From NCBI GenBank assembly GCA_955652025.1, contig CATPAO010000390.1, positions 1-15,165 of the forward strand: a stretch of 15,165 nt of DNA, read 5' to 3'. Within the stretch, counting starts at the first letter, position 1. Each line of letters opens with the position of its first letter. This stretch comes from Casimicrobiaceae bacterium (GTDB taxonomy: Bacteria > Pseudomonadota > Gammaproteobacteria > Burkholderiales > Casimicrobiaceae). The notes beneath the pieces were generated by a model. The model saw only the letters and a program-made list of their open reading frames with translations, was not told the DNA's origin and did not search any database. The position numbers were made by a program, and so were the translations under genes. Shown here one piece after another: positions 2,814 through 14,640 of the stretch.

Positions 2814-3608
2814 ATGCAACCCTATCTCGATTTCATGCGCCACGTGCGCGACCACGGTCACCGAAAGGACGACCGCACCGGCACGGGGACGCTGTCGGTC
2901 TTTGGCCATCAGATGCGGTTCGATCTCGGCCGCGGCTTTCCGCTGCTGACGACGAAAAAAGTCCACACCAAGTCGATCATCCATGAGCTGCTGTGGTTCT
3001 TGCGCGGCGAGACCAACGTGCGTTCGTTGCAGGCCAAGGGCGTCACGATCTGGGACGAGTGGGCGGACGCCGACGGTGAGCTCGGGCCGATCTATGGCTA
3101 TCAATGGCGAAGCTGGCCGGCGCCCGAGGGCCGGCACATCGATCAGATCGCGCAGGTATTGGCGGAAATCCGCCGCAACCCGGACTCGCGGCGGCTGATC
3201 GTATCGGCGTGGAATGTTTCCGATATCCCGCGGATGAAACTACCGCCCTGCCATGCGTTCTTCCAGTTCTACGTCGCGGGCGGACGGCTGTCGTGTCAGC
3301 TTTACCAGCGAAGCGCCGACATATTCCTGGGCGTGCCGTTCAACATCGCTTCGTATGCGCTGTTGACGCACATGATCGCGCATCAATGCGGTCTCGACGT
3401 CGGCGATTTCGTCTGGACCGGCGGCGATTGTCACCTCTACCTCAACCATCTGGATCAGGTCGAGACACAACTCGCGCGAACGCCGATGTCGCCGCCGCAG
3501 TTGCTGATCGCGCGGAAGCCGCCGTCGCTGTTCGAATACGAGTTCGAGGATTTTGAGATCGTGGGCTACGCGCCGCACCCGGCGATCAAGGCGCCGGTCG
3601 CCGTTTAA
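2814..3608 (+). CDS. thyA: Thymidylate synthase
   Basis: ThyA methylates dUMP to dTMP in the cytoplasm, using methylene-tetrahydrofolate and releasing dihydrofolate, which FolA recycles. The protein is 264 residues, the same length as the E. coli enzyme. The nucleophile C146 lies in [12 protein letters not shown]. Arg21 is in DRTGTGT, R166 and D169 in QRSAD, N177 in [10 protein letters not shown], and the conserved C-terminal end [10 protein letters not shown] is present. It appears intact and functional. No strong Shine-Dalgarno precedes the ATG. No terminator for plus-strand transcription is seen after the stop. The hairpin at 3652-3676 has its T-run on the other strand, so thyA converges on the small minus-strand transcript. 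The folA gene lies about 4.2 kb downstream instead of next to it. Confidence 0.98.
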
Positions 3609-3642
3609 GGTAACTTGTCCGTGCCGCGGCGGGCGGGCGCGC

Positions 3643-3676
3643 AAAAAAAAAGCCCGCTGGGAGGAATTTAGCGGGC
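3643..3676 (-). terminator. Rho-independent terminator of the small minus-strand transcript
   Basis: On the minus strand a 7-bp stem GCCCGCT/AGCGGGC with an 11-nt loop is followed immediately by nine T residues (positions 3651-3643). On the plus strand no T-run follows, so it acts in one direction, away from glrR. The loop carries TTCCTCCC, the complement of a Shine-Dalgarno sequence. Confidence 0.9.
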
Positions 3677-3690
3677 AAGGGGGATTCGGG

Positions 3691-3709
3691 CTCGGGGCAT
3701 CGCCCCGAG
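3691..3709 (-). repeat. Perfect stem-loop in the 3' part of the small transcript
   Basis: CTCGGGGC and GCCCCGAG form an 8-bp perfect stem with a 3-nt loop. It lies between the small ORF and the terminator and is the middle of three consecutive hairpins. Confidence 0.6.
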
Positions 3710-3715
3710 GGCATC

Positions 3716-3735
3716 GTCGGAAGGGGGCTTCCGAC
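3716..3735 (-). repeat. Perfect stem-loop with C4 loop, 3' of the small ORF
   Basis: GTCGGAAG and CTTCCGAC form an 8-bp perfect stem with a 4-nt loop that reads CCCC in the minus-strand RNA. It starts 10 bp after the small ORF's stop codon. Confidence 0.6.
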
Positions 3736-3745
3736 AACGCGAAAT

Positions 3746-3907
3746 TCAGAAAATGCTGCGTGCGGCGGTCACGCGCTCGGCCAGCTGTTCCAGTGCGGCC
3801 CGTTGCGCGCTCGCTTCCTCGTCGCGGCGATCGGCTTTCGTCTCGCCCGCGCCCGACGCCTGGCCTGGCAGCCAGTAGTGAGCGAATTCCGGAGCGAACG
3901 ATTCCAT
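3746..3907 (-). CDS. Small 53-residue protein, candidate GlrR/sigma-54 target
   Basis: I do not recognise the family. The ORF starts at ATG 3907, with GAGG six bases upstream, and stops at 3746. The first half begins MESFAPEFAHYWLPGQ, and the second half is a charged Ala/Glu/Arg helix (RRDEEASAQRAALEQL) that could form a short coiled coil. There is no signal peptide and no membrane segment. The frame stays open to 3949 but the upstream part would overlap the promoter, so the shorter start is preferred. It sits 37 bp downstream of the predicted sigma-54 start site and immediately before three stem-loops and a terminator, so it forms its own transcription unit. It could alternatively be a chance ORF within a non-coding RNA. 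Codon use is GC-rich like its neighbours, which favours coding. Confidence 0.6.
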   Translation of the reverse strand: MESFAPEFAHYWLPGQASGAGETKADRRDEEASAQRAALEQLAERVTAARSIF

Positions 3908-3944
3908 GATGCGCCTCGACCGTTGGAAAACGGTGGTTACTCTC

Positions 3945-3980
3945 ACCACTCGTTAAGCAAGCCACATGCCAACGAGTGGT
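3945..3980. repeat. Perfect 10-bp inverted repeat enclosing the sigma-54 promoter
   Basis: The arms ACCACTCGTT (3945-3954) and AACGAGTGGT (3971-3980) are exact reverse complements separated by 16 bp, and those 16 bp are almost exactly the sigma-54 promoter. The arm centres are 26 bp apart. It could be a binding site for a dimeric regulator or a cruciform. In read-through RNA from glrR it would form a 10-bp hairpin. Confidence 0.7.
3956..3971 (-). promoter_or_regulatory. Sigma-54 (-24/-12) promoter
   Basis: Read on the minus strand, TGGCATGTGGCTTGCT matches the sigma-54 consensus TGGCAYR-N4-TTGCW at every defined position. The invariant GG and GC are separated by the required 10 bp. It drives transcription away from glrR towards the 53-codon ORF. 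Two GlrR-type motifs lie upstream at enhancer distance, and the neighbouring regulator is a sigma-54 activator. Confidence 0.85.
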
Positions 3981-4038
3981 CGAAGCGTCCATTGTGCGAC
4001 TTACGCCCTTTTTTCAACCCTGAACGGCGAATTCGGCA

Positions 4039-4056
4039 TATTCATTGCAGACGACA
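4039..4056. promoter_or_regulatory. Degenerate third GlrR-type site
   Basis: TATT-N10-GACA has one perfect half-site and one poor half-site, centred about 100 bp upstream of the predicted start. It is listed because enterobacterial GlrR targets carry several sites; the match alone is weak. Confidence 0.25.
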
Positions 4057-4077
4057 ATGGATCGAGCAGGACCCGTT

Positions 4078-4095
4078 TGTCGCGAATCAAAGACG
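4078..4095. promoter_or_regulatory. Near-perfect GlrR-type enhancer site
   Basis: TGTC-N10-GACG matches the GlrR motif TGTC-N10-GACA at 7 of 8 defined bases. It is centred about 140 bp upstream of the predicted sigma-54 start site. Confidence 0.55.
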
Positions 4096-4142
4096 CCTAA
4101 TGTTGCAGCTGCGTTAACTGAATGATCATAAACAATTAATTA

Positions 4143-4160
4143 TGTCTCCATTCGGCGACA
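4143..4160. promoter_or_regulatory. Perfect GlrR-type enhancer site
   Basis: TGTC-N10-GACA is an exact match to the motif described for enterobacterial GlrR upstream of glmY. It is centred about 205 bp upstream of the predicted start and 39 bp beyond the end of glrR. An AT-rich stretch (4121-4145) beside it could aid DNA bending, but no exact IHF consensus is seen. Confidence 0.65.
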
Positions 4161-4198
4161 GCATGCGCTTGTCATGACGCGCTGCGGCAAAGCTGCTT

Positions 4199-5554
4199 TC
4201 ACGTCTTTCCCTCCTTGAACATCGCCGGCTCGAGGCGGTGTCGCTGCAGCAACTTATAGAATTCCGTCCGATTACGCTTGGCGAGCTGCGCCGCCTGGGT
4301 AACGTTCCCGCCGGTGATTTTCATCAGCCGTGCCAGATAGTCGCGTTCGAACGACTTCCGCGCTTCTTCGAAGGGGACCAAGACCGCCGCATCCTCCTTG
4401 AGCGCGTTCTGCACCAGCGTCGCCGGGATAATGGGCGTCGGCGTCAGCGCGACCGCCTGTTCCAACAGATTGAGGAGTTGCCGGACGTTGCCGGGCCACG
4501 GCGCGGCAACCAGCAGCGCCATCGCGTCGGGCGCCAGCGTCGGCACCGGCTTGCGATACCGGTCCGCGAGCTGGCGCAACAGGTAGGCCGCCAGCAACGG
4601 GATGTCTTCCCGGCGATCCGCCAAGGAAGGCAGGTGTAACGAAACGACATTCAGCCGGTAGTAAAGATCCTCGCGAAAGCGACCACTCGCTCTTTGCTCT
4701 TCCAGATCGCGATGCGTCGCCGAAATGACGCGGACGTCGACCGGTATCGCCTGGGTCGAGCCGACCGGGCGTACCTCGCTCTCCTGCAGGACCCGCAGCA
4801 GCTTGACCTGGAGCGGCAATGGCATGTCGCCGATCTCGTCCAGCAGCAGCGTGCCGCCGTCGGCCGCCTGGAACAACCCCTTGTGCGCGGCGACCGCGCC
4901 GGTGAAGGCTCCCCGCGCGTGTCCGAAGAGCTCGGATTCGAGCAAATCCCCGGGGATCGCGCCGCAGTTGACCGCCACGAACGGGCGCTCGGCGCGTCGG
5001 CTCGCCCGATGAATGGCGCGCGCCAATAGCTCCTTGCCCGTCCCGGAGTCCCCGTAAATCAAGACGCTCGCGTCGGACTCGGCCACGAGCCGGGCTTGCC
5101 GCAACAGATCCTCCATCTTGGAGCTGCGCGTGATAATGCCGTCGCGCCACTCGCCCGACTCGCCGTCGGCGCCCGCGACGCTGTCGCCGGACAGGCGCAG
5201 CGCCGCCGCCACCTTCTGAAGCACTTCCTGACTGTCGAACGGCTTGGTCAGAAAAGCGAATACGCCGCGCTGCGTCGCGTTCACGGCGTCGGGGATGGTT
5301 CCATGCGCGGTGAGGATGATGACCGGCAATGCGGGATGCTGGCGATGGATCGCCTCGAACAACTGCATGCCGTCGATACCCGGCATCCGCATGTCGGTGA
5401 TCACCGCGCCGGGCCGTGCAATGGCGAGCGCAGCCAACGCGGTTTCGCCGCTTTCGGCCGTGCGGACCCGGTAGCCGGCGGAAGCGAGCCGCAAATTGAT
5501 CAGTTTGAGCAGATCGGGGTCGTCGTCGACCAGCAGAATCTCTCCGGTTTTCAT
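4199..5554 (-). CDS. glrR: Sigma-54-dependent response regulator GlrR (QseF)
   Basis: This 451-residue NtrC-family activator is phosphorylated by the partner kinase GlrK and then opens sigma-54 promoters. The receiver domain (1-120) has acidic D10-D12, phospho-acceptor D54 (ITDMRMPG), T82 and K104. The AAA+ domain (about 140-375) has Walker A GDSGTGKE (168-175), the sigma-54 contact loop GAFTGA (215-220) and Walker B LLLDEIGD. The C-terminal Fis-type helix-turn-helix contains AKRNRTEFYKLLQRH, a signature of the GlrR subfamily. It follows the lipoprotein gene by 24 bp, with AAAGGAGA in front of the ATG. The probable target sites lie just downstream of its own stop codon. The subfamily call also rests on gene order (kinase, lipoprotein, regulator), which matches glrK-qseG-glrR of enterobacteria. 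Confidence 0.95.
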   Translation of the reverse strand: MKTGEILLVDDDPDLLKLINLRLASAGYRVRTAESGETALAALAIARPGAVITDMRMPGIDGMQLFEAIHRQHPALPVIILTAHGTIPDAVNATQRGVFAFLTKPFDSQEVLQKVAAALRLSGDSVAGADGESGEWRDGIITRSSKMEDLLRQARLVAESDASVLIYGDSGTGKELLARAIHRASRRAERPFVAVNCGAIPGDLLESELFGHARGAFTGAVAAHKGLFQAADGGTLLLDEIGDMPLPLQVKLLRVLQESEVRPVGSTQAIPVDVRVISATHRDLEEQRASGRFREDLYYRLNVVSLHLPSLADRREDIPLLAAYLLRQLADRYRKPVPTLAPDAMALLVAAPWPGNVRQLLNLLEQAVALTPTPIIPATLVQNALKEDAAVLVPFEEARKSFERDYLARLMKITGGNVTQAAQLAKRNRTEFYKLLQRHRLEPAMFKEGKT

Positions 5555-5578: not shown

Positions 5579-6313
5579 TCAGTGTCCGGCGGAGCCGCCG
5601 CCACCGCCACCGCCCCCGCCGCCCCCGCTTCGCACACGGTCGCGCAACAGGCTCCGCTCCATCTCACGCAACGCCTCCAACTTTTGTATCGCCTTGTCGG
5701 CCTTTTGCTGCTCGTCGCGGACCGCCCGCTGCCGTTCGGTGATTTGCACCTGTAGAACCGCGGCCAACTGCTTGATCGCCATCGGCCCCGGATTGCTGCG
5801 CGCGACGTTGTCGAACAGTTGCAGCGCGCGCTGGTCGTCCTGCGGTGTCGCGTGCACCAGCGTGTATAGCACCGCGAGCCGCACGCGATTTGCGTCGGTG
5901 CGTTGCCGTGTCAGCGCGGCGGTTGCGTTGTCGCGCTCGCGCCGCAGGTCGTCGTTCGATAGCGTGCCATAGCGTTGCAAGTCCGCGAGCAGCGCCAGCA
6001 TCTGCTGATCCTCGATGGGCTCGTCCGCCGCAGGCGTCGGCGCGATCATCGCGACGGAGGCGGGTGGTTCGCGCGGCGGTTCGGCGACAACCGGTACCGG
6101 CGGCGATGGCGCGCTCGGCGGCGGATCCGGCGCGGGGAGCGGCGGTTCCACCGGCTCGATCGGCGCGGCGTCGGCGGGTGGCGTTGCCGGCGGGATCGTG
6201 ACGAGCTCGGGCTCGTACTGCTCCTCGGGCGTCAGCACGACCGCGGGCGGGGAGGCGCAACCGGCGACACAAAACGCAAACGCCAGCGCGATAACCGCCT
6301 GTCGATCCGTCAT
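5579..6313 (-). CDS. qseG: QseG-like outer-membrane lipoprotein of the Glr system
   Basis: This 244-residue protein has a signal peptide ending in the lipobox VAGC, with C19 as the lipidated residue. Residues 20-95 are very rich in proline, glutamate and alanine, giving an extended linker. Residues about 105-225 are a charged helical region (RQRAVRDEQQKADKAIQKLEALRE). The protein ends in eleven consecutive glycines followed by SAGH. In enterobacteria QseG is a lipoprotein that interacts with the kinase GlrK and links it to the envelope. The ATG overlaps the kinase stop codon (ATGA), so the two are translationally coupled. Identification rests on position, size (E. coli QseG is of similar length) and lipobox; sequence similarity is expected to be low. 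The poly-glycine tail is unusual. Confidence 0.8.
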   Translation of the reverse strand: MTDRQAVIALAFAFCVAGCASPPAVVLTPEEQYEPELVTIPPATPPADAAPIEPVEPPLPAPDPPPSAPSPPVPVVAEPPREPPASVAMIAPTPAADEPIEDQQMLALLADLQRYGTLSNDDLRRERDNATAALTRQRTDANRVRLAVLYTLVHATPQDDQRALQLFDNVARSNPGPMAIKQLAAVLQVQITERQRAVRDEQQKADKAIQKLEALREMERSLLRDRVRSGGGGGGGGGGGSAGH

Positions 6314-7794
6314 TTGATGCCTGCGAGCGTTGCCGATTTGGCCGCCGCACTTCTTGCGGCAGCGGCTCCCGGCAGCAACGGCAACGTCAGCCGAAACCAG
6401 GCGCCGCGCTTGCCGTCGGCGCGATCGAGAAGCTCGATCCGCCCGCCATGCGCCATCGCATATTCACGCGCGATGGCCAACCCGAGACCCGAGCCCTTGA
6501 CGCGGCCGTCGACCGGCGCAGGGCCCTGATAGAACGAATCGAAGATGCGCCCGCGATGATCGGGGGCGATTCCCGGTCCCTGATCGATCACGTCGAGGAT
6601 CGCGTCGCTGCCCGAAGCGGCGGCGGCCAACTCGATCACTCCGGAGCGCGGCGAATATTTGATCGCGTTGGACACGAGATTGTCGACGATCGTGCGGATT
6701 TTTTCAGCGTCGCCCACAACAAGCGCCGGCTTGAGCTTCGTGTCGAACGAGATCAGCCGCGCAAGCGCCGCGAGCTTCTGCTCGCGCACGACTCGGGAGA
6801 CCACGTCCGACAGCACGATCGGCCCGACCGTCACCGGCTCGATCGCGCGCGACTGCTGGTAAGCCAACAAGTCCTCGATCAGCTTCTGCAACTCGAGCGT
6901 GTTGTCGCGCACGATGCGGACGATGTCCTGCTGCTCCGCCGACAAGCGGCCGCCGACGTTGTCGCGCAACAGCTCGGCGCCTTCGCGCACGGCGGTGAGC
7001 GGCGTCTTCAGTTCGTGCGAGACGTGGCGCAGGAACTGCGTTTGCTGCTGCTCCAACTCGGCGAGGCGCGTGCGCAGCCACTCGAGGCGCTGACCGACAT
7101 AGCGCAAATCCTGCGGCCCACTCACCTGAATCGCATGGGTGAAATCGGCGGTCCCCATCTCGCGAATCGCCTGATCGAGCTGGCGGATCGGCCGCGCGAT
7201 CAGCGTGGCGAACAGGATCGCGAGCGCGATCGCGATGCCGACGGTGGCGAGCCCGACGTAGAACCATTTCTCCCGACCCTGCGTCGCCGTGACCTGCAGG
7301 CGCTCGATCGCGCGCTGCGTCAGCTGATTGGCGGCTGTCGTCATCGCGCGCGCGCCGTCGACCAGCTGCGCATAGCCATCGACGATTTCGACGCCGATGT
7401 CGGACGTGCGCTGTGGTGCGGTCAGCCGCCGGTACAGGCGGGTCTCGCGTTCGGTGAGATCGGCGAGTGTGGCCTGCTGCGAGGGTTCGAGCGGCAGCGC
7501 GGCGAGCTGCTGCGCCGCCTGGCGGAACTCCTGTCGCACCGGGGCATAATCGTCGAGCAGGGCGTTGTCCTCGAGGATCAGGTGCTGGCGCGCGATCCGT
7601 TCGAGCGTTGTCGTCTGCTCGAACATCAGGCGGCTCGTCCGGCCGGCCTGTGCCGCCTGCAACACTTCCTCGCCGGCCTGCGACGCCAGCCGGTCGAGCG
7701 ACAGAATCAATTCGGCGAGCGCATAGACGAGCGGCAGGCTGACGAGTAGAAAGCCCAGCAGGATGAACTTGAGAAAGGAGCGAGGGTAATACAC
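6310..7794 (-). CDS. glrK: Sensor histidine kinase GlrK (QseE)
   Basis: This 494-residue inner-membrane kinase has transmembrane helix 1 at about 8-30, a periplasmic helical domain (31-177), transmembrane helix 2 (178-200) and a HAMP linker. The HisKA domain carries FLRHVSHELKTPL with H260 as the phosphorylated histidine. The catalytic domain carries the N box DNLVSNAIKY, G1 DQGPGIA and G2 GSGLGLA. The stretch SGPQDLRYVGQRLEWL before the HisKA domain and REGAELL after it are characteristic of GlrK. It phosphorylates GlrR. The start codon is GTG at 7794, with only a weak ribosome binding site. It is the first gene of the glrK-qseG-glrR operon and is divergent from folA. The signal sensed is unknown; in E. 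coli the system responds to envelope conditions. Confidence 0.95.
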   Translation of the reverse strand: MYYPRSFLKFILLGFLLVSLPLVYALAELILSLDRLASQAGEEVLQAAQAGRTSRLMFEQTTTLERIARQHLILEDNALLDDYAPVRQEFRQAAQQLAALPLEPSQQATLADLTERETRLYRRLTAPQRTSDIGVEIVDGYAQLVDGARAMTTAANQLTQRAIERLQVTATQGREKWFYVGLATVGIAIALAILFATLIARPIRQLDQAIREMGTADFTHAIQVSGPQDLRYVGQRLEWLRTRLAELEQQQTQFLRHVSHELKTPLTAVREGAELLRDNVGGRLSAEQQDIVRIVRDNTLELQKLIEDLLAYQQSRAIEPVTVGPIVLSDVVSRVVREQKLAALARLISFDTKLKPALVVGDAEKIRTIVDNLVSNAIKYSPRSGVIELAAAASGSDAILDVIDQGPGIAPDHRGRIFDSFYQGPAPVDGRVKGSGLGLAIAREYAMAHGGRIELLDRADGKRGAWFRLTLPLLPGAAAARSAAAKSATLAGIK

Positions 7795-12600: not shown

Positions 12601-14409
12601 TCAATAAGGTGCCGCCTTAACCTCGATCATACTTCGCAGATCCATGAGGATGTGGCGTAATTCCGCGATCTCGCGTTGCTGCTCGCTGATAGTTGTGGCC
12701 TGATCCTCGAGCTTCGCGTTCAACCCCTGGATCGCGGCCAGTGCCACGCCATCCAGATTGACGTTTGCGATGCTCTTGTCGTTCCTGCCCAAGCCGAAGG
12801 CCGCGTAGAAATCCTGGGCAGTGGGTCCGAGCGAGCGGATGGCAGGGTCAGCGCCCTTGAAGGTCCACGAGAAGAGAGGCATCGCCACCAGCCGCCGCAG
12901 GATGTCCATGCCGTCCGCCGCGACGAAGTTTTCCTTTGCGTCCCGGTCGCTCGTGCATGACCAACTCGCGATGGGCGGCAACAGGTTGCAGAACTGGGTG
13001 ACCGCGCCGGTGGTCGGGTCGATGGCGATGGTCAGGCCCACTCCGCCCGTGGCCCTGACACCAAAAAAGTTGCCCACCGACGGGCCGAAATCGAAATTCC
13101 GCGAATCAGCCCAGATAAACGATCCGTCGGTAGTAGCCTTCGCCTGATGGCCGGCGGCGAAACTCGCGAATCCACTTGCGGTATTAAAGAGTCCGCCGGG
13201 CACCACCGCGTCCTGGCCGCTCGCAGTGTTGCCAAAACCCCCGGCCACCGTCGAGCCATTGCCACTCGCAGTGTTGTTTACTCCGCCCCCAATCGTGGCG
13301 AACGACTTGGTGATGTGATTGGGAGCTGGGCTCGCGGTTATGCTGGTTCCACCCCCGCTGATCGTCGCGCCCACAACGCCCGCGTCGATGCTGTTCAGCG
13401 GCGAGCCATTTACGACATTTACCACGTTGGTGTAGGTAACACCGTTAACTGGGGTCAAGCGCAGCGCCGGCTGGTTGTTGGTCAGAATGGTTACCGATTG
13501 GTTATCGGTTGTGCCGAGCAACGCCGTGGTGCCGAAGGCATTGCCGCCTTGAACGAAATAATTGCCCGGACCGGCCGGTGCCCTAAAGTAGCCGACAATG
13601 TCGATGACCACATCAGCCCCAGCGCCGTTGGTGTTTACCGTGAGTTGATTGGCGCAGTCCGGCACACAGGCCGGAATGATCGCCCCGTTGGAGAGGGCGA
13701 ATGTCCCGCCCTGATAGTTGAGGACGCTGGTGTTGGGCAACGCCCCGCCGGTCGGATACGCAATCAGATTGCCAAACCCCGTCATGTTCACTACCGCAAT
13801 ATTCAGCACCACCGCTGCCGGATTGGCCGGCACGCCACAATTGCCGCTATCCCCACCCTGCGCGGTAAATCCGCCCGACGGCACCCACACCTTGAAGTCG
13901 CGCGTGCTGTTGGCACCCAAGAAACCACCCGCCACCCGCGTATCCGCCAGCCGGCAGGGAGTCACCGGCGTGTACGCCAGATCATCGCTCGTGTCCCCCA
14001 GCGCCTTGGTGTGGAGCAGATTCGCCTTCACGTCCGCGGTTGCGGTTACCGCATGGGCAATGACATCGCGTAATCCGTCGAGCGTGCCGGCCAGGCTCGC
14101 CGCCAGCAAGTGATCGGAGCGCAATCCCGCGAGCAGCGTGCGCAGTTGCTCCGCATTCAGCGTCGCGCCCGATTGACGCAACGGTTCGCTCCACTGCGCC
14201 ACGATTCGATCGACCACCGTCGCGCGGTTCTGATCCACTGCAAGCAGCGGCGAAGGCAGGATGTGGGGAGTCGGCGCCAGCGCGACCGCCGTTGCCTCGG
14301 CTGTGGCAATCGGCACCACTACTCGGTCATCGGTCGCAACCGCGGCGGCGGAGAACAGTAATTGAACGATGACCACCGCCGATGACAACAGCATCCCGCG
14401 ACGATTCAT
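12601..14409 (-). CDS. Exported mosaic surface protein with YadA-head-like repeats and C-terminal S74 chaperone domain
   Basis: This 602-residue protein has a signal peptide (MNRRGMLLSSAVVIVQLLFSAAAVA). A helical region (40-135) follows. Residues about 145-276 form a module beginning PCRLADTR, containing CGVPANPAAVVLNIAVV and ending VVIDIVGYF, a module I associate with bacterial surface and exported proteins. Residues 369-420 hold a repeat of about 14 residues (ATIGGGVNNTASG, TVAGGFGNTASG) like trimeric autotransporter heads. The C terminus is an S74 intramolecular chaperone domain with the Ser-Lys pair in S487-DRDA-K492-EN, and a final coiled coil (about 560-595). S74 domains help trimers fold and then cut themselves off. 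No membrane anchor is seen, so it may be secreted. The ATG at 14409 has a strong ribosome binding site (GGGGAGG); the upstream extension to 14520 is rejected. Confidence 0.85.
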   Translation of the reverse strand: MNRRGMLLSSAVVIVQLLFSAAAVATDDRVVVPIATAEATAVALAPTPHILPSPLLAVDQNRATVVDRIVAQWSEPLRQSGATLNAEQLRTLLAGLRSDHLLAASLAGTLDGLRDVIAHAVTATADVKANLLHTKALGDTSDDLAYTPVTPCRLADTRVAGGFLGANSTRDFKVWVPSGGFTAQGGDSGNCGVPANPAAVVLNIAVVNMTGFGNLIAYPTGGALPNTSVLNYQGGTFALSNGAIIPACVPDCANQLTVNTNGAGADVVIDIVGYFRAPAGPGNYFVQGGNAFGTTALLGTTDNQSVTILTNNQPALRLTPVNGVTYTNVVNVVNGSPLNSIDAGVVGATISGGGTSITASPAPNHITKSFATIGGGVNNTASGNGSTVAGGFGNTASGQDAVVPGGLFNTASGFASFAAGHQAKATTDGSFIWADSRNFDFGPSVGNFFGVRATGGVGLTIAIDPTTGAVTQFCNLLPPIASWSCTSDRDAKENFVAADGMDILRRLVAMPLFSWTFKGADPAIRSLGPTAQDFYAAFGLGRNDKSIANVNLDGVALAAIQGLNAKLEDQATTISEQQREIAELRHILMDLRSMIEVKAAPY

Positions 14410-14440
14410 GACGGCCTCCCCGTTGTGCGTTACCACGACG

Positions 14441-14469
14441 ATTCGACGCTGATGCGATTGCGACGTCAA
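14441..14469 (-). promoter_or_regulatory. Candidate sigma-70 promoter for the S74 surface protein
   Basis: On the minus strand TTGACG (14469-14464) is followed after 17 bp by TCGAAT (14446-14441), matching the consensus at 5/6 and 4/6. The start of transcription would be about 25 bp upstream of the ATG. Confidence 0.4.
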
Positions 14470-14640
14470 GCCTAAGCTAGGTCTGCGCAGGCGACAGCAT
14501 GCACTCCATGTCAGCGTCATGCGGGGATGCAGCCAATCGTCAGCGTTGCGAAGAATTGGGGTGCATGCGACGATTCATCACCCGCAACGGCATTAGACCG
14601 TCGGGCGTTTGGACGTAGCCTGACCACATTTGGGGGCGCT

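What the first reader, a model, noticed from the sequence alone, without database searches (positions are those of the whole stretch)
3643..4160. A GlrR/sigma-54-controlled small transcript encoded directly beside the glrK-qseG-glrR operon
Seen: a full-consensus sigma-54 promoter (3971-3956), one perfect and one 7/8 TGTC-N10-GACA motif upstream, a 53-codon ORF with a ribosome binding site, three strong stem-loops and an intrinsic terminator, all pointing the same way. Known: enterobacterial GlrR binds this motif and activates the small RNA glmY through sigma-54. Inference: this is a local GlrR target in a betaproteobacterium, but it appears to encode a small protein, or a dual-function RNA, instead of a GlmY-like RNA. 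I know of no description of this locus.
Basis: partly seen in the sequence, partly recalled or inferred. Interest (0 to 1): 0.85.

Follow-up and report, generated by a model that had tools for sequence, protein, structure and literature searches.

The report
GlrR-controlled small protein and RNA
Beside its own genes, a bacterial envelope-stress sensing system appears to switch on one short transcript that encodes a tiny unknown protein and ends in a hairpin shaped like a small RNA that would block ribosome-binding sites, a pairing of outputs not described for this regulator in the papers searched.

Summary
In relatives (family probably Casimicrobiaceae, Burkholderiales) the two sites lie 65 bp apart (22 of 24 loci; the others 66 and 67), with a sigma-54 box about 120 bp further on and an IHF-like site at a fixed place between them. 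The ORF is a real gene: dN/dS 0.11-0.53 in 11 of 11 chosen pairs, 47 of 64 family genomes, no known domain. The transcript's 3' end is a second conserved element: a C-rich strand plus a terminator hairpin with UCCUCC (anti-Shine-Dalgarno) in its loop. The two come apart: one genus (probably termite-gut) keeps sites, promoter and hairpin without the ORF; another has the unit away from glrR, with sites, ORF and UCCUCC in the loop of a different hairpin; one genome has ORF and promoter without the hairpin. Best reading: a GlrR/IHF/sigma-54-activated dual transcript (small protein plus anti-SD sRNA), parallel to GlmY but unrelated in sequence. Outside the family 29 of 36 stretches behind glrR have a GlrR site plus sigma-54 box, before other genes. 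Nothing is shown experimentally.

The parts
4143..4160 (-). distal GlrR-type site, TGTC-N10-GACA, perfect
   Evidence: a site with at most one mismatch at this place in 24 of 24 oriented loci
4115..4127 (-). IHF-like site (WATCAANNNNTTR, consensus recalled) between the two GlrR sites; 2 mismatches in the window
   Evidence: at this fixed offset with at most 1 mismatch in 24 of 36 loci tried; shuffles give on average 1.1 of 36 anywhere in the interval
4078..4095 (-). proximal GlrR-type site, 7/8 match, 65 bp from the first
   Evidence: spacing 65 in 22 of 24 loci, 66 and 67 in the others
3956..3971 (-). sigma-54 promoter box TGGCATGTGGCTTGCT; start of transcription inferred near 3944
   Evidence: 20 of 24 loci exact, 4 with one mismatch
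3746..3907 (-). ORF for a 53-aa protein of an unnamed family (stop included)
   Evidence: (dN/dS)
3711..3740 (-). stem-loop 1 behind the ORF
   Evidence: by eye not kept as such in the relatives printed
3691..3709 (-). stem-loop 2
3677..3686 (-). conserved strand AAUCCCCCUU
   Evidence: a CCCC core is invariant in the 36 aligned modules
3652..3676 (-). terminator stem-loop 3, covarying stem
   Evidence: 97.6% of cells paired, 3 of 7 pairs with changes on both sides
3660..3665 (-). UCCUCC, anti-Shine-Dalgarno sequence in the terminator loop
3643..3651 (-). T9 tail of the terminator
4199..5554 (-). glrR (NtrC-type response regulator; presumed activator)
5579..6313 (-). qseG-like lipoprotein gene (named by position; no Pfam or NCBIfam match)
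6310..7794 (-). glrK-like sensor kinase (named by position; HisKA, HATPase, weak HAMP)

Best explanation
A dual-function transcription unit. Phosphorylated GlrR binds two sites 65 bp apart, IHF bends the DNA between them, and GlrR opens sigma-54 RNA polymerase about 120 bp downstream. The roughly 300-nt transcript is first an mRNA for a 48-57 aa protein whose C-terminal half is predicted to be a long helix. Its 3' end (C-rich strand plus terminator hairpin with a UCCUCC loop) works as a base-pairing small RNA that covers Shine-Dalgarno sequences of target mRNAs and lowers their translation. Shown by comparison: the coding nature of the ORF, the promoter architecture, the conserved and mostly exposed loop. 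Inferred: GlrR, IHF and sigma-54 action, release or action of the RNA end, the targets, and any partnership between protein and RNA.
For: Promoter: two sites 65 bp apart in 22 of 24 loci, sigma-54 box with 0-1 mismatch in 24 of 24; the pair with at most 1 mismatch in 43 of 64 family genomes, one place each, 40 of them at this unit and three before another gene, reversed-pattern control in 1 of 64; IHF-like site at fixed offset. Protein: dN/dS 0.11-0.53 in the ORF frame in 11 of 11 chosen pairs against 0.63-4.03 in 21 shifted-frame comparisons and no dS in a 22nd; 47 of 64 genomes, one copy each. RNA: module in 37 of 64 genomes at E below 1e-6 plus six weak matches; kept without an ORF in genus g6; strict module pattern in 22 places among 84,980 species, all 22 behind a sigma-54 box; loop hexamer open with median probability 0.99, above 0.5 in 35 of 39 transcripts; genus g2 carries a TTTCCTCCCCCGGTC loop in 15 of 15 loci on another hairpin with a covarying stem.
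Against: No transcript, binding or translation data. In the window's own full-length transcript the loop hexamer is predicted mostly paired (open probability 0.26), as in three others. One genome keeps the ORF and promoter without the hairpin (G018), one has a hairpin without UCCUCC (G021), one has CUCUCCC (L005) and one CCCUCC (G036). No target was identified; glmS gave no signal. In genus g6 two genomes with a diverged GlrR show no unit behind glrR and no module, and a third has only a weak module match elsewhere. Closely related pairs outside my chosen 11 reach dN/dS 0.72, so parts of the protein evolve fast.
Confidence: 0.62

Rival explanations
1. It is only a small mRNA: GlrR and sigma-54 drive the 53-aa protein, and the C-rich hairpin is just its terminator.
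For: The ORF is under clear purifying selection and one genome keeps ORF and promoter without the module (G018). Intrinsic terminators are expected here in any case.
Against: The module persists without an ORF in genus g6 (0 of 11 genomes with ORF; 8 of 11 with a module match, one of them weak), and UCCUCC sits in the loop of a different hairpin in genus g2. A plain terminator needs no fixed loop sequence.
Confidence: 0.22
2. The UCCUCC loop acts in cis, pairing with GA-rich stretches of its own transcript to tune translation of the small ORF or termination.
For: In the window's full transcript and three others the hexamer is predicted partly paired inside the transcript.
Against: It is open with probability above 0.5 in 35 of 39 transcripts, and the ORF-less genus keeps it.
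Confidence: 0.1
3. It is a GlmY/GlmZ-like RNA that controls glmS.
For: Same regulator, motif, IHF and sigma-54 logic as glmY (PMC6075780 and PMC8745638, passages).
Against: No Rfam GlmY/GlmZ match even at E 10; in 12 of 13 species the loop pairs with the glmS start region no better than shuffles at the 5% level, and the C-rich strand in none; it lies downstream of glrR rather than upstream of glrK; it has a coding ORF.
Confidence: 0.04
4. The ORF is accidental and only an RNA is made.
For: The ORF is absent from genus g6 (0 of 11 genomes).
Against: dN/dS and frame controls and 177 homologous proteins in a large collection.
Confidence: 0.02

Closest known systems
GlmY and the GlrK-QseG-GlrR (QseE-QseG-QseF) system of Enterobacteriaceae
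   Same: Response regulator, TGTC-N10-GACA type sites, IHF assistance, sigma-54 promoter, adjacency to the operon (PMC6075780 and PMC8745638, passages).
   Different: Here downstream of glrR, two sites instead of three, a coding ORF, no match to the GlmY/GlmZ models, no sign of glmS pairing.
alpha-r14 / CcsR 'cuckoo' RNAs with a DUF1127 protein (CIN1 locus)
   Same: alpha-r14 RNAs have three hairpins with CCUCCUCCC anti-SD motifs (PMC10746234, passages); [quoted passage not shown] That CcsR RNAs carry the same motif is recalled. ar14 is the best weak Rfam match here, 24.7 bits.
   Different: Below the ar14 cut-off of 58.8; the protein has no DUF1127 match; one anti-SD loop; different promoter and class of bacteria.
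S17 / bdhR1 (Betaproteobacteria toxic sRNA, RF02278)
   Same: Betaproteobacterial sRNAs whose single-stranded parts pair with ribosome-binding sites (PMC11722255: abstract, sections 5, 8, 12 and passages).
   Different: Separate gene: RF02278-like matches lie elsewhere in the same genomes, below the cut-off (own copy L167); S17 uses a sigma-A promoter.
LhrC of Listeria under LisRK
   Same: Envelope-stress two-component system drives an sRNA whose loops, terminator loop included, carry a C-rich motif that binds a Shine-Dalgarno region (PMC4132741, passages).
   Different: Unrelated bacteria, five copies; no sigma-54 and no ORF in the passages seen.

Membership tests
GlmY/GlmZ RNA family | match to the Rfam covariance models | tested here: not met
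   none in the window at gathering, none in 3600-4200 at E up to 10
GlmY/GlmZ RNA family | control of glmS | tested here: inconclusive
   computation only: loop pairing with the glmS start no better than shuffles at 5% in 12 of 13 species
GlrR-activated sigma-54 promoter | TGTC-N10-GACA sites upstream of a sigma-54 box | tested here: met
GlrR-activated sigma-54 promoter | IHF site in the upstream region | tested here: inconclusive
   sequence match at fixed offset in 24 of 36 loci, but two mismatches in the window itself; binding not tested
GlrR-activated sigma-54 promoter | loss of transcription without glrR or rpoN | not testable with these tools
   needs mutants
GlrR equivalog (NF011695) | score over the curated cut-off 763 bits | tested here: not met
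   645 bits, best of all NCBIfam models, next 423
ar14 (RF02344) | score over the gathering cut-off 58.8 bits | tested here: not met
   24.7 bits, E 0.014
Betaproteobacteria toxic sRNA (RF02278) | match at this locus | tested here: not met
   no match here; weaker matches elsewhere in the genome
Dual-function RNA (small mRNA plus base-pairing RNA) | a translated ORF | tested here: inconclusive
   codon evolution says coding; translation itself not seen
Dual-function RNA (small mRNA plus base-pairing RNA) | a base-pairing activity of the RNA | tested here: inconclusive
   conserved, mostly exposed anti-SD loop; no target shown

The most novel reading that the evidence does not exclude
GlrR's original output in Betaproteobacteria is a neighbouring sigma-54 envelope operon. 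In one lineage its 3' end became an anti-SD small RNA, and living relatives preserve the steps: hairpin as the 3' end of a glycine-zipper operon (family f48), hairpin behind a 53-aa gene (most Casimicrobiaceae), hairpin without the gene (genus g6), and UCCUCC re-housed on a new hairpin where the unit lies away from glrR (genus g2). The small protein may be a dedicated partner of the RNA, as CcaF1 is for CcsR.
Probability: 0.3. Interest if true: 0.8.

Novelty: new variant of a known kind. Interest (0 to 1): 0.66.

Why it matters
It gives the GlrR system, known from GlmY in enterobacteria, a defined likely output in a group for which the paper listings searched show none, and suggests the same wiring (GlrR, IHF, sigma-54, adjacent small RNA) serving an unrelated RNA. 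The genus-by-genus separation of ORF and hairpin makes the birth of a stand-alone small RNA from an mRNA 3' end testable, and the promoter behind glrR in much of the order offers an immediate handle on what GlrR does in Betaproteobacteria.

Tried and rejected
GlmY/GlmZ membership and glmS control: tested, not supported (two of 15 species were skipped because no glmS start was recognised). Known protein family for the ORF: none in Pfam or NCBIfam; AlphaFold gave one long C-terminal helix (residues 21-52, mean pLDDT 73.4), so no fold search was made. RF02278 as the identity of the RNA: rejected. The perfect 10-nt inverted repeat around the sigma-54 box looked like an operator, but the 26 other loci printed show at most 6 of 10 matches, so it is treated as private to this genome. 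Weak hits of the ORF outside the family (13 of 243 genomes at E up to 0.05, best 0.0016 in a 491-aa frame) and loci L025, L026, L028-L030 were judged chance and left out of counts. Of 35 order genomes with an R1 match, 28 are neither family members nor f48 (E 0.0002-0.01) and were not counted as the same RNA.

Full report
What is in the window. The minus strand reads glrK-like, qseG-like, glrR, then an interval with two TGTC-N10-GACA sites (4160-4143 perfect, 4095-4078 with one mismatch), an exact sigma-54 box (3971-3956), a 53-codon ORF (3907-3746), two hairpins, the strand AAUCCCCCUU and a terminator hairpin with T9; thyA comes towards it from the other side. Single GlrR motifs are not rare (7 with up to 1 mismatch in the window, 4.71 expected), so the case rests on conservation.

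Conservation of the promoter. A search with the 53-aa protein in 61 relatives gave 24 places at E of 0.0024 or better, the own one included. I oriented 24 loci: 23 of those 24 plus one weaker hit with glrR beside it (L027); L021 was left out because its contig begins inside the ORF. In 22 of 24 two GlrR sites (each with at most one mismatch) lie exactly 65 bp apart, in the others 66 and 67; the sigma-54 consensus is exact in 20 and has one mismatch in 4, 180-204 bp from the first site. As a pattern, the pair with at most one mismatch in all occurs in 43 of 64 family genomes, one place each; the reversed control rings in one genome. Forty of the 43 are at this unit (in one, G029, the contig ends before the promoter); in three (G071-G073) the place is upstream of another gene, and their own unit has its pair 66 bp apart. 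Between the sites an IHF consensus (recalled: WATCAANNNNTTR) sits at offset 15 with at most one mismatch in 24 of 36 loci tried, while shuffles average 1.1 of 36 anywhere in the interval; the window's own copy at that place has two mismatches. In E. coli, QseF (GlrR) is assisted by IHF and binds three sites upstream of glmY (PMC6075780, passages), so the logic looks the same with two sites.

The protein. For 30 species I extracted the ORF. In 11 pairs of relatives that I chose, dN/dS is 0.11-0.53 in the ORF frame; the two shifted frames gave 0.63-4.03 or, once, no synonymous change. The 18 closest of all pairs range from 0.11 to 0.72. A profile of 35 sequences finds 177 proteins in the large collection, none of the 120 listed with a Pfam domain; it finds 47 of 64 family genomes, one copy each, and in an order sample 7 of 7 family members but no convincing hit in the other 243 genomes. 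Of the 17 family genomes without it, 11 are genus g6; of the other six, three also lack a glrR match and one contig ends at the promoter. Invariant: M1, L42, A48, A49, R50. The model predicts a helix over residues 21-52.

The RNA end. A conserved 3' module follows: GAAUCCCCCUU, then a hairpin with UCCUCC in the loop, then T's. Of 39 loci looked at, 36 gave the module; of the other three, one contig ends early (L043), one locus has no module (L020) and one has a hairpin without UCCUCC (L021). Of the 36, 35 contain UCCUCC and one has CUCUCCC. The 7-bp stem pairs in 97.6% of cells with changes on both sides at three pairs. The hexamer is open with a median probability of 0.99, above 0.5 in 35 of 39 transcripts, but only 0.26 in the window's own full-length transcript; the isolated hairpin folds with the loop open. 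A covariance model matches 43 of 64 family genomes: 37 at E below 1e-6 and six weakly, five of them in genus g2, where in the four I read the matched hairpin is the plain terminator; G024 has a weak second match. A strict pattern finds 22 places among 84,980 species. All 22 have a sigma-54 box with 0-1 mismatch upstream; 18 have the 65-bp pair with at most one mismatch, three fetched stretches stop short of it, and the last (L053, a contig of the same length as G081:C10) has its pair 64 bp apart.

Protein and RNA come apart. Genus g6, whose bin names suggest termite guts (my inference), has no ORF in 11 of 11 genomes but sites, promoter and module in those read (L047-L050; L191, L192, and L190 with a CCCUCC loop); the model hits 8 of 11, one weakly. 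Two g6 genomes with a GlrR only 63% identical (G080, G082) show no unit behind glrR and no module; a third (G083, 64%) none behind glrR and a weak match elsewhere. In genus g2 the ORF is found in 15 genomes, all but G065 and G068; in the 14 of these with a glrR match it lies on another contig or at least 30 kb away. All 15 loci have paired sites 65-66 bp apart (up to two mismatches in a site), a weaker sigma-54 box of the type TGGCACG-N5-CGC, and the loop UUUCCUCCCCCGGUC, on a separate 12-bp hairpin; in two the outer stem is different. In 11 distinct rows of the others the stem pairs in 100% of cells, with three double changes. In G018 the ORF and promoter remain and the module is gone. A plain terminator would not explain UCCUCC kept in the loops of unlike hairpins.

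Beyond the family. GlrR relatives at E of 1e-125 or better occur in 104 of 250 order genomes. I read 40 downstream stretches chosen to cover many families. Leaving out four from genus g2, 29 of 36 have a GlrR site followed by a sigma-54 box 60-190 bp on, and 16 have the full pair; reversed and shuffled sequences give 0. There the transcripts carry other genes, such as glycine-zipper, EF-hand/BON-like or CsbD-like proteins (my reading of the translations). In family f48 two genomes (G153, G110) have a closely similar module behind a glycine-zipper gene with GlrR sites and a sigma-54 box upstream; in G110 this lies behind kinase and lipoprotein genes, with the glrR match on another contig. A third f48 genome (G192) has a weaker match about 3 kb behind glrR.

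How it most likely works. GlrR and IHF activate sigma-54 polymerase; the transcript makes the small protein and ends in an anti-SD hairpin that represses mRNAs with complementary ribosome-binding sites. Precedents for such loops: alpha-r14 RNAs with CCUCCUCCC (PMC10746234, passages), S17 (PMC11722255, abstract, sections 5, 8, 12 and passages), LhrC with its terminator loop (PMC4132741, passages). Precedent for a small protein co-transcribed with small RNAs: CcaF1 and CcsR1-4 (PMC10253847, passages). glmS is not an evident target (12 of 13 species no better than shuffles at the 5% level). Targets are unknown.

Known or not. Eight paper searches that ran showed no description of this locus or of a GlrR-linked RNA outside enterobacteria in their listings, which are capped; subscription papers are mostly not held. 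PMC3162934 (passages) lists QseF-like activators and glmY but no such RNA in the passages seen. The kinds of parts are known; the combination and its wiring are new as far as seen here.

Noticed in passing
3945-3954 and 3971-3980: A perfect 10-nt inverted repeat (ACCACTCGTT/AACGAGTGGT) encloses the sigma-54 box; the 26 other loci printed show at most 6 of 10 matching positions, so it looks private to this genome and is unexplained.
   Followed up: yes
L037, L038, L039 (genomes G071, G072, G073 of genus g2): Another pair of GlrR-type sites 65 bp apart, with an IHF-like AATCAATG..TT between them, lies upstream of a gene whose product looks bactofilin-like (my reading); possibly a second, cell-shape related GlrR target. 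No clear sigma-54 box was seen.
   Followed up: partly
L077-L112: In the order sample the stretch behind glrR carries a GlrR site and sigma-54 box in 29 of 36 loci, but the downstream genes differ widely: a conserved switch with changing cargo.
   Followed up: partly
L078, L082, L088, L090, L101: Terminator-like hairpins with TCCTCC in the loop (for example CGCCCGATTTCCTCCCTTATCGGGCG) behind GlrR-linked genes of other families; they may be unrelated anti-SD hairpins of the same kind.
   Followed up: no
L167 (G000:C192) and L168 (G008:C197): The same genomes hold a separate RF02278-like RNA with UUCCUCC and UCUCCUCC segments, below the family's cut-off.
   Followed up: partly
window 12601-14520 (-): A 639-aa protein with a C-terminal Peptidase_S74 chaperone domain, as known from phage tail fibres (recalled); whether phage genes are near was not examined.
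   Followed up: no
L070 (CALQLA020000016.1): A metagenome bin titled Bordetella parapertussis that carries this unit; the title is probably a misassignment.
   Followed up: no
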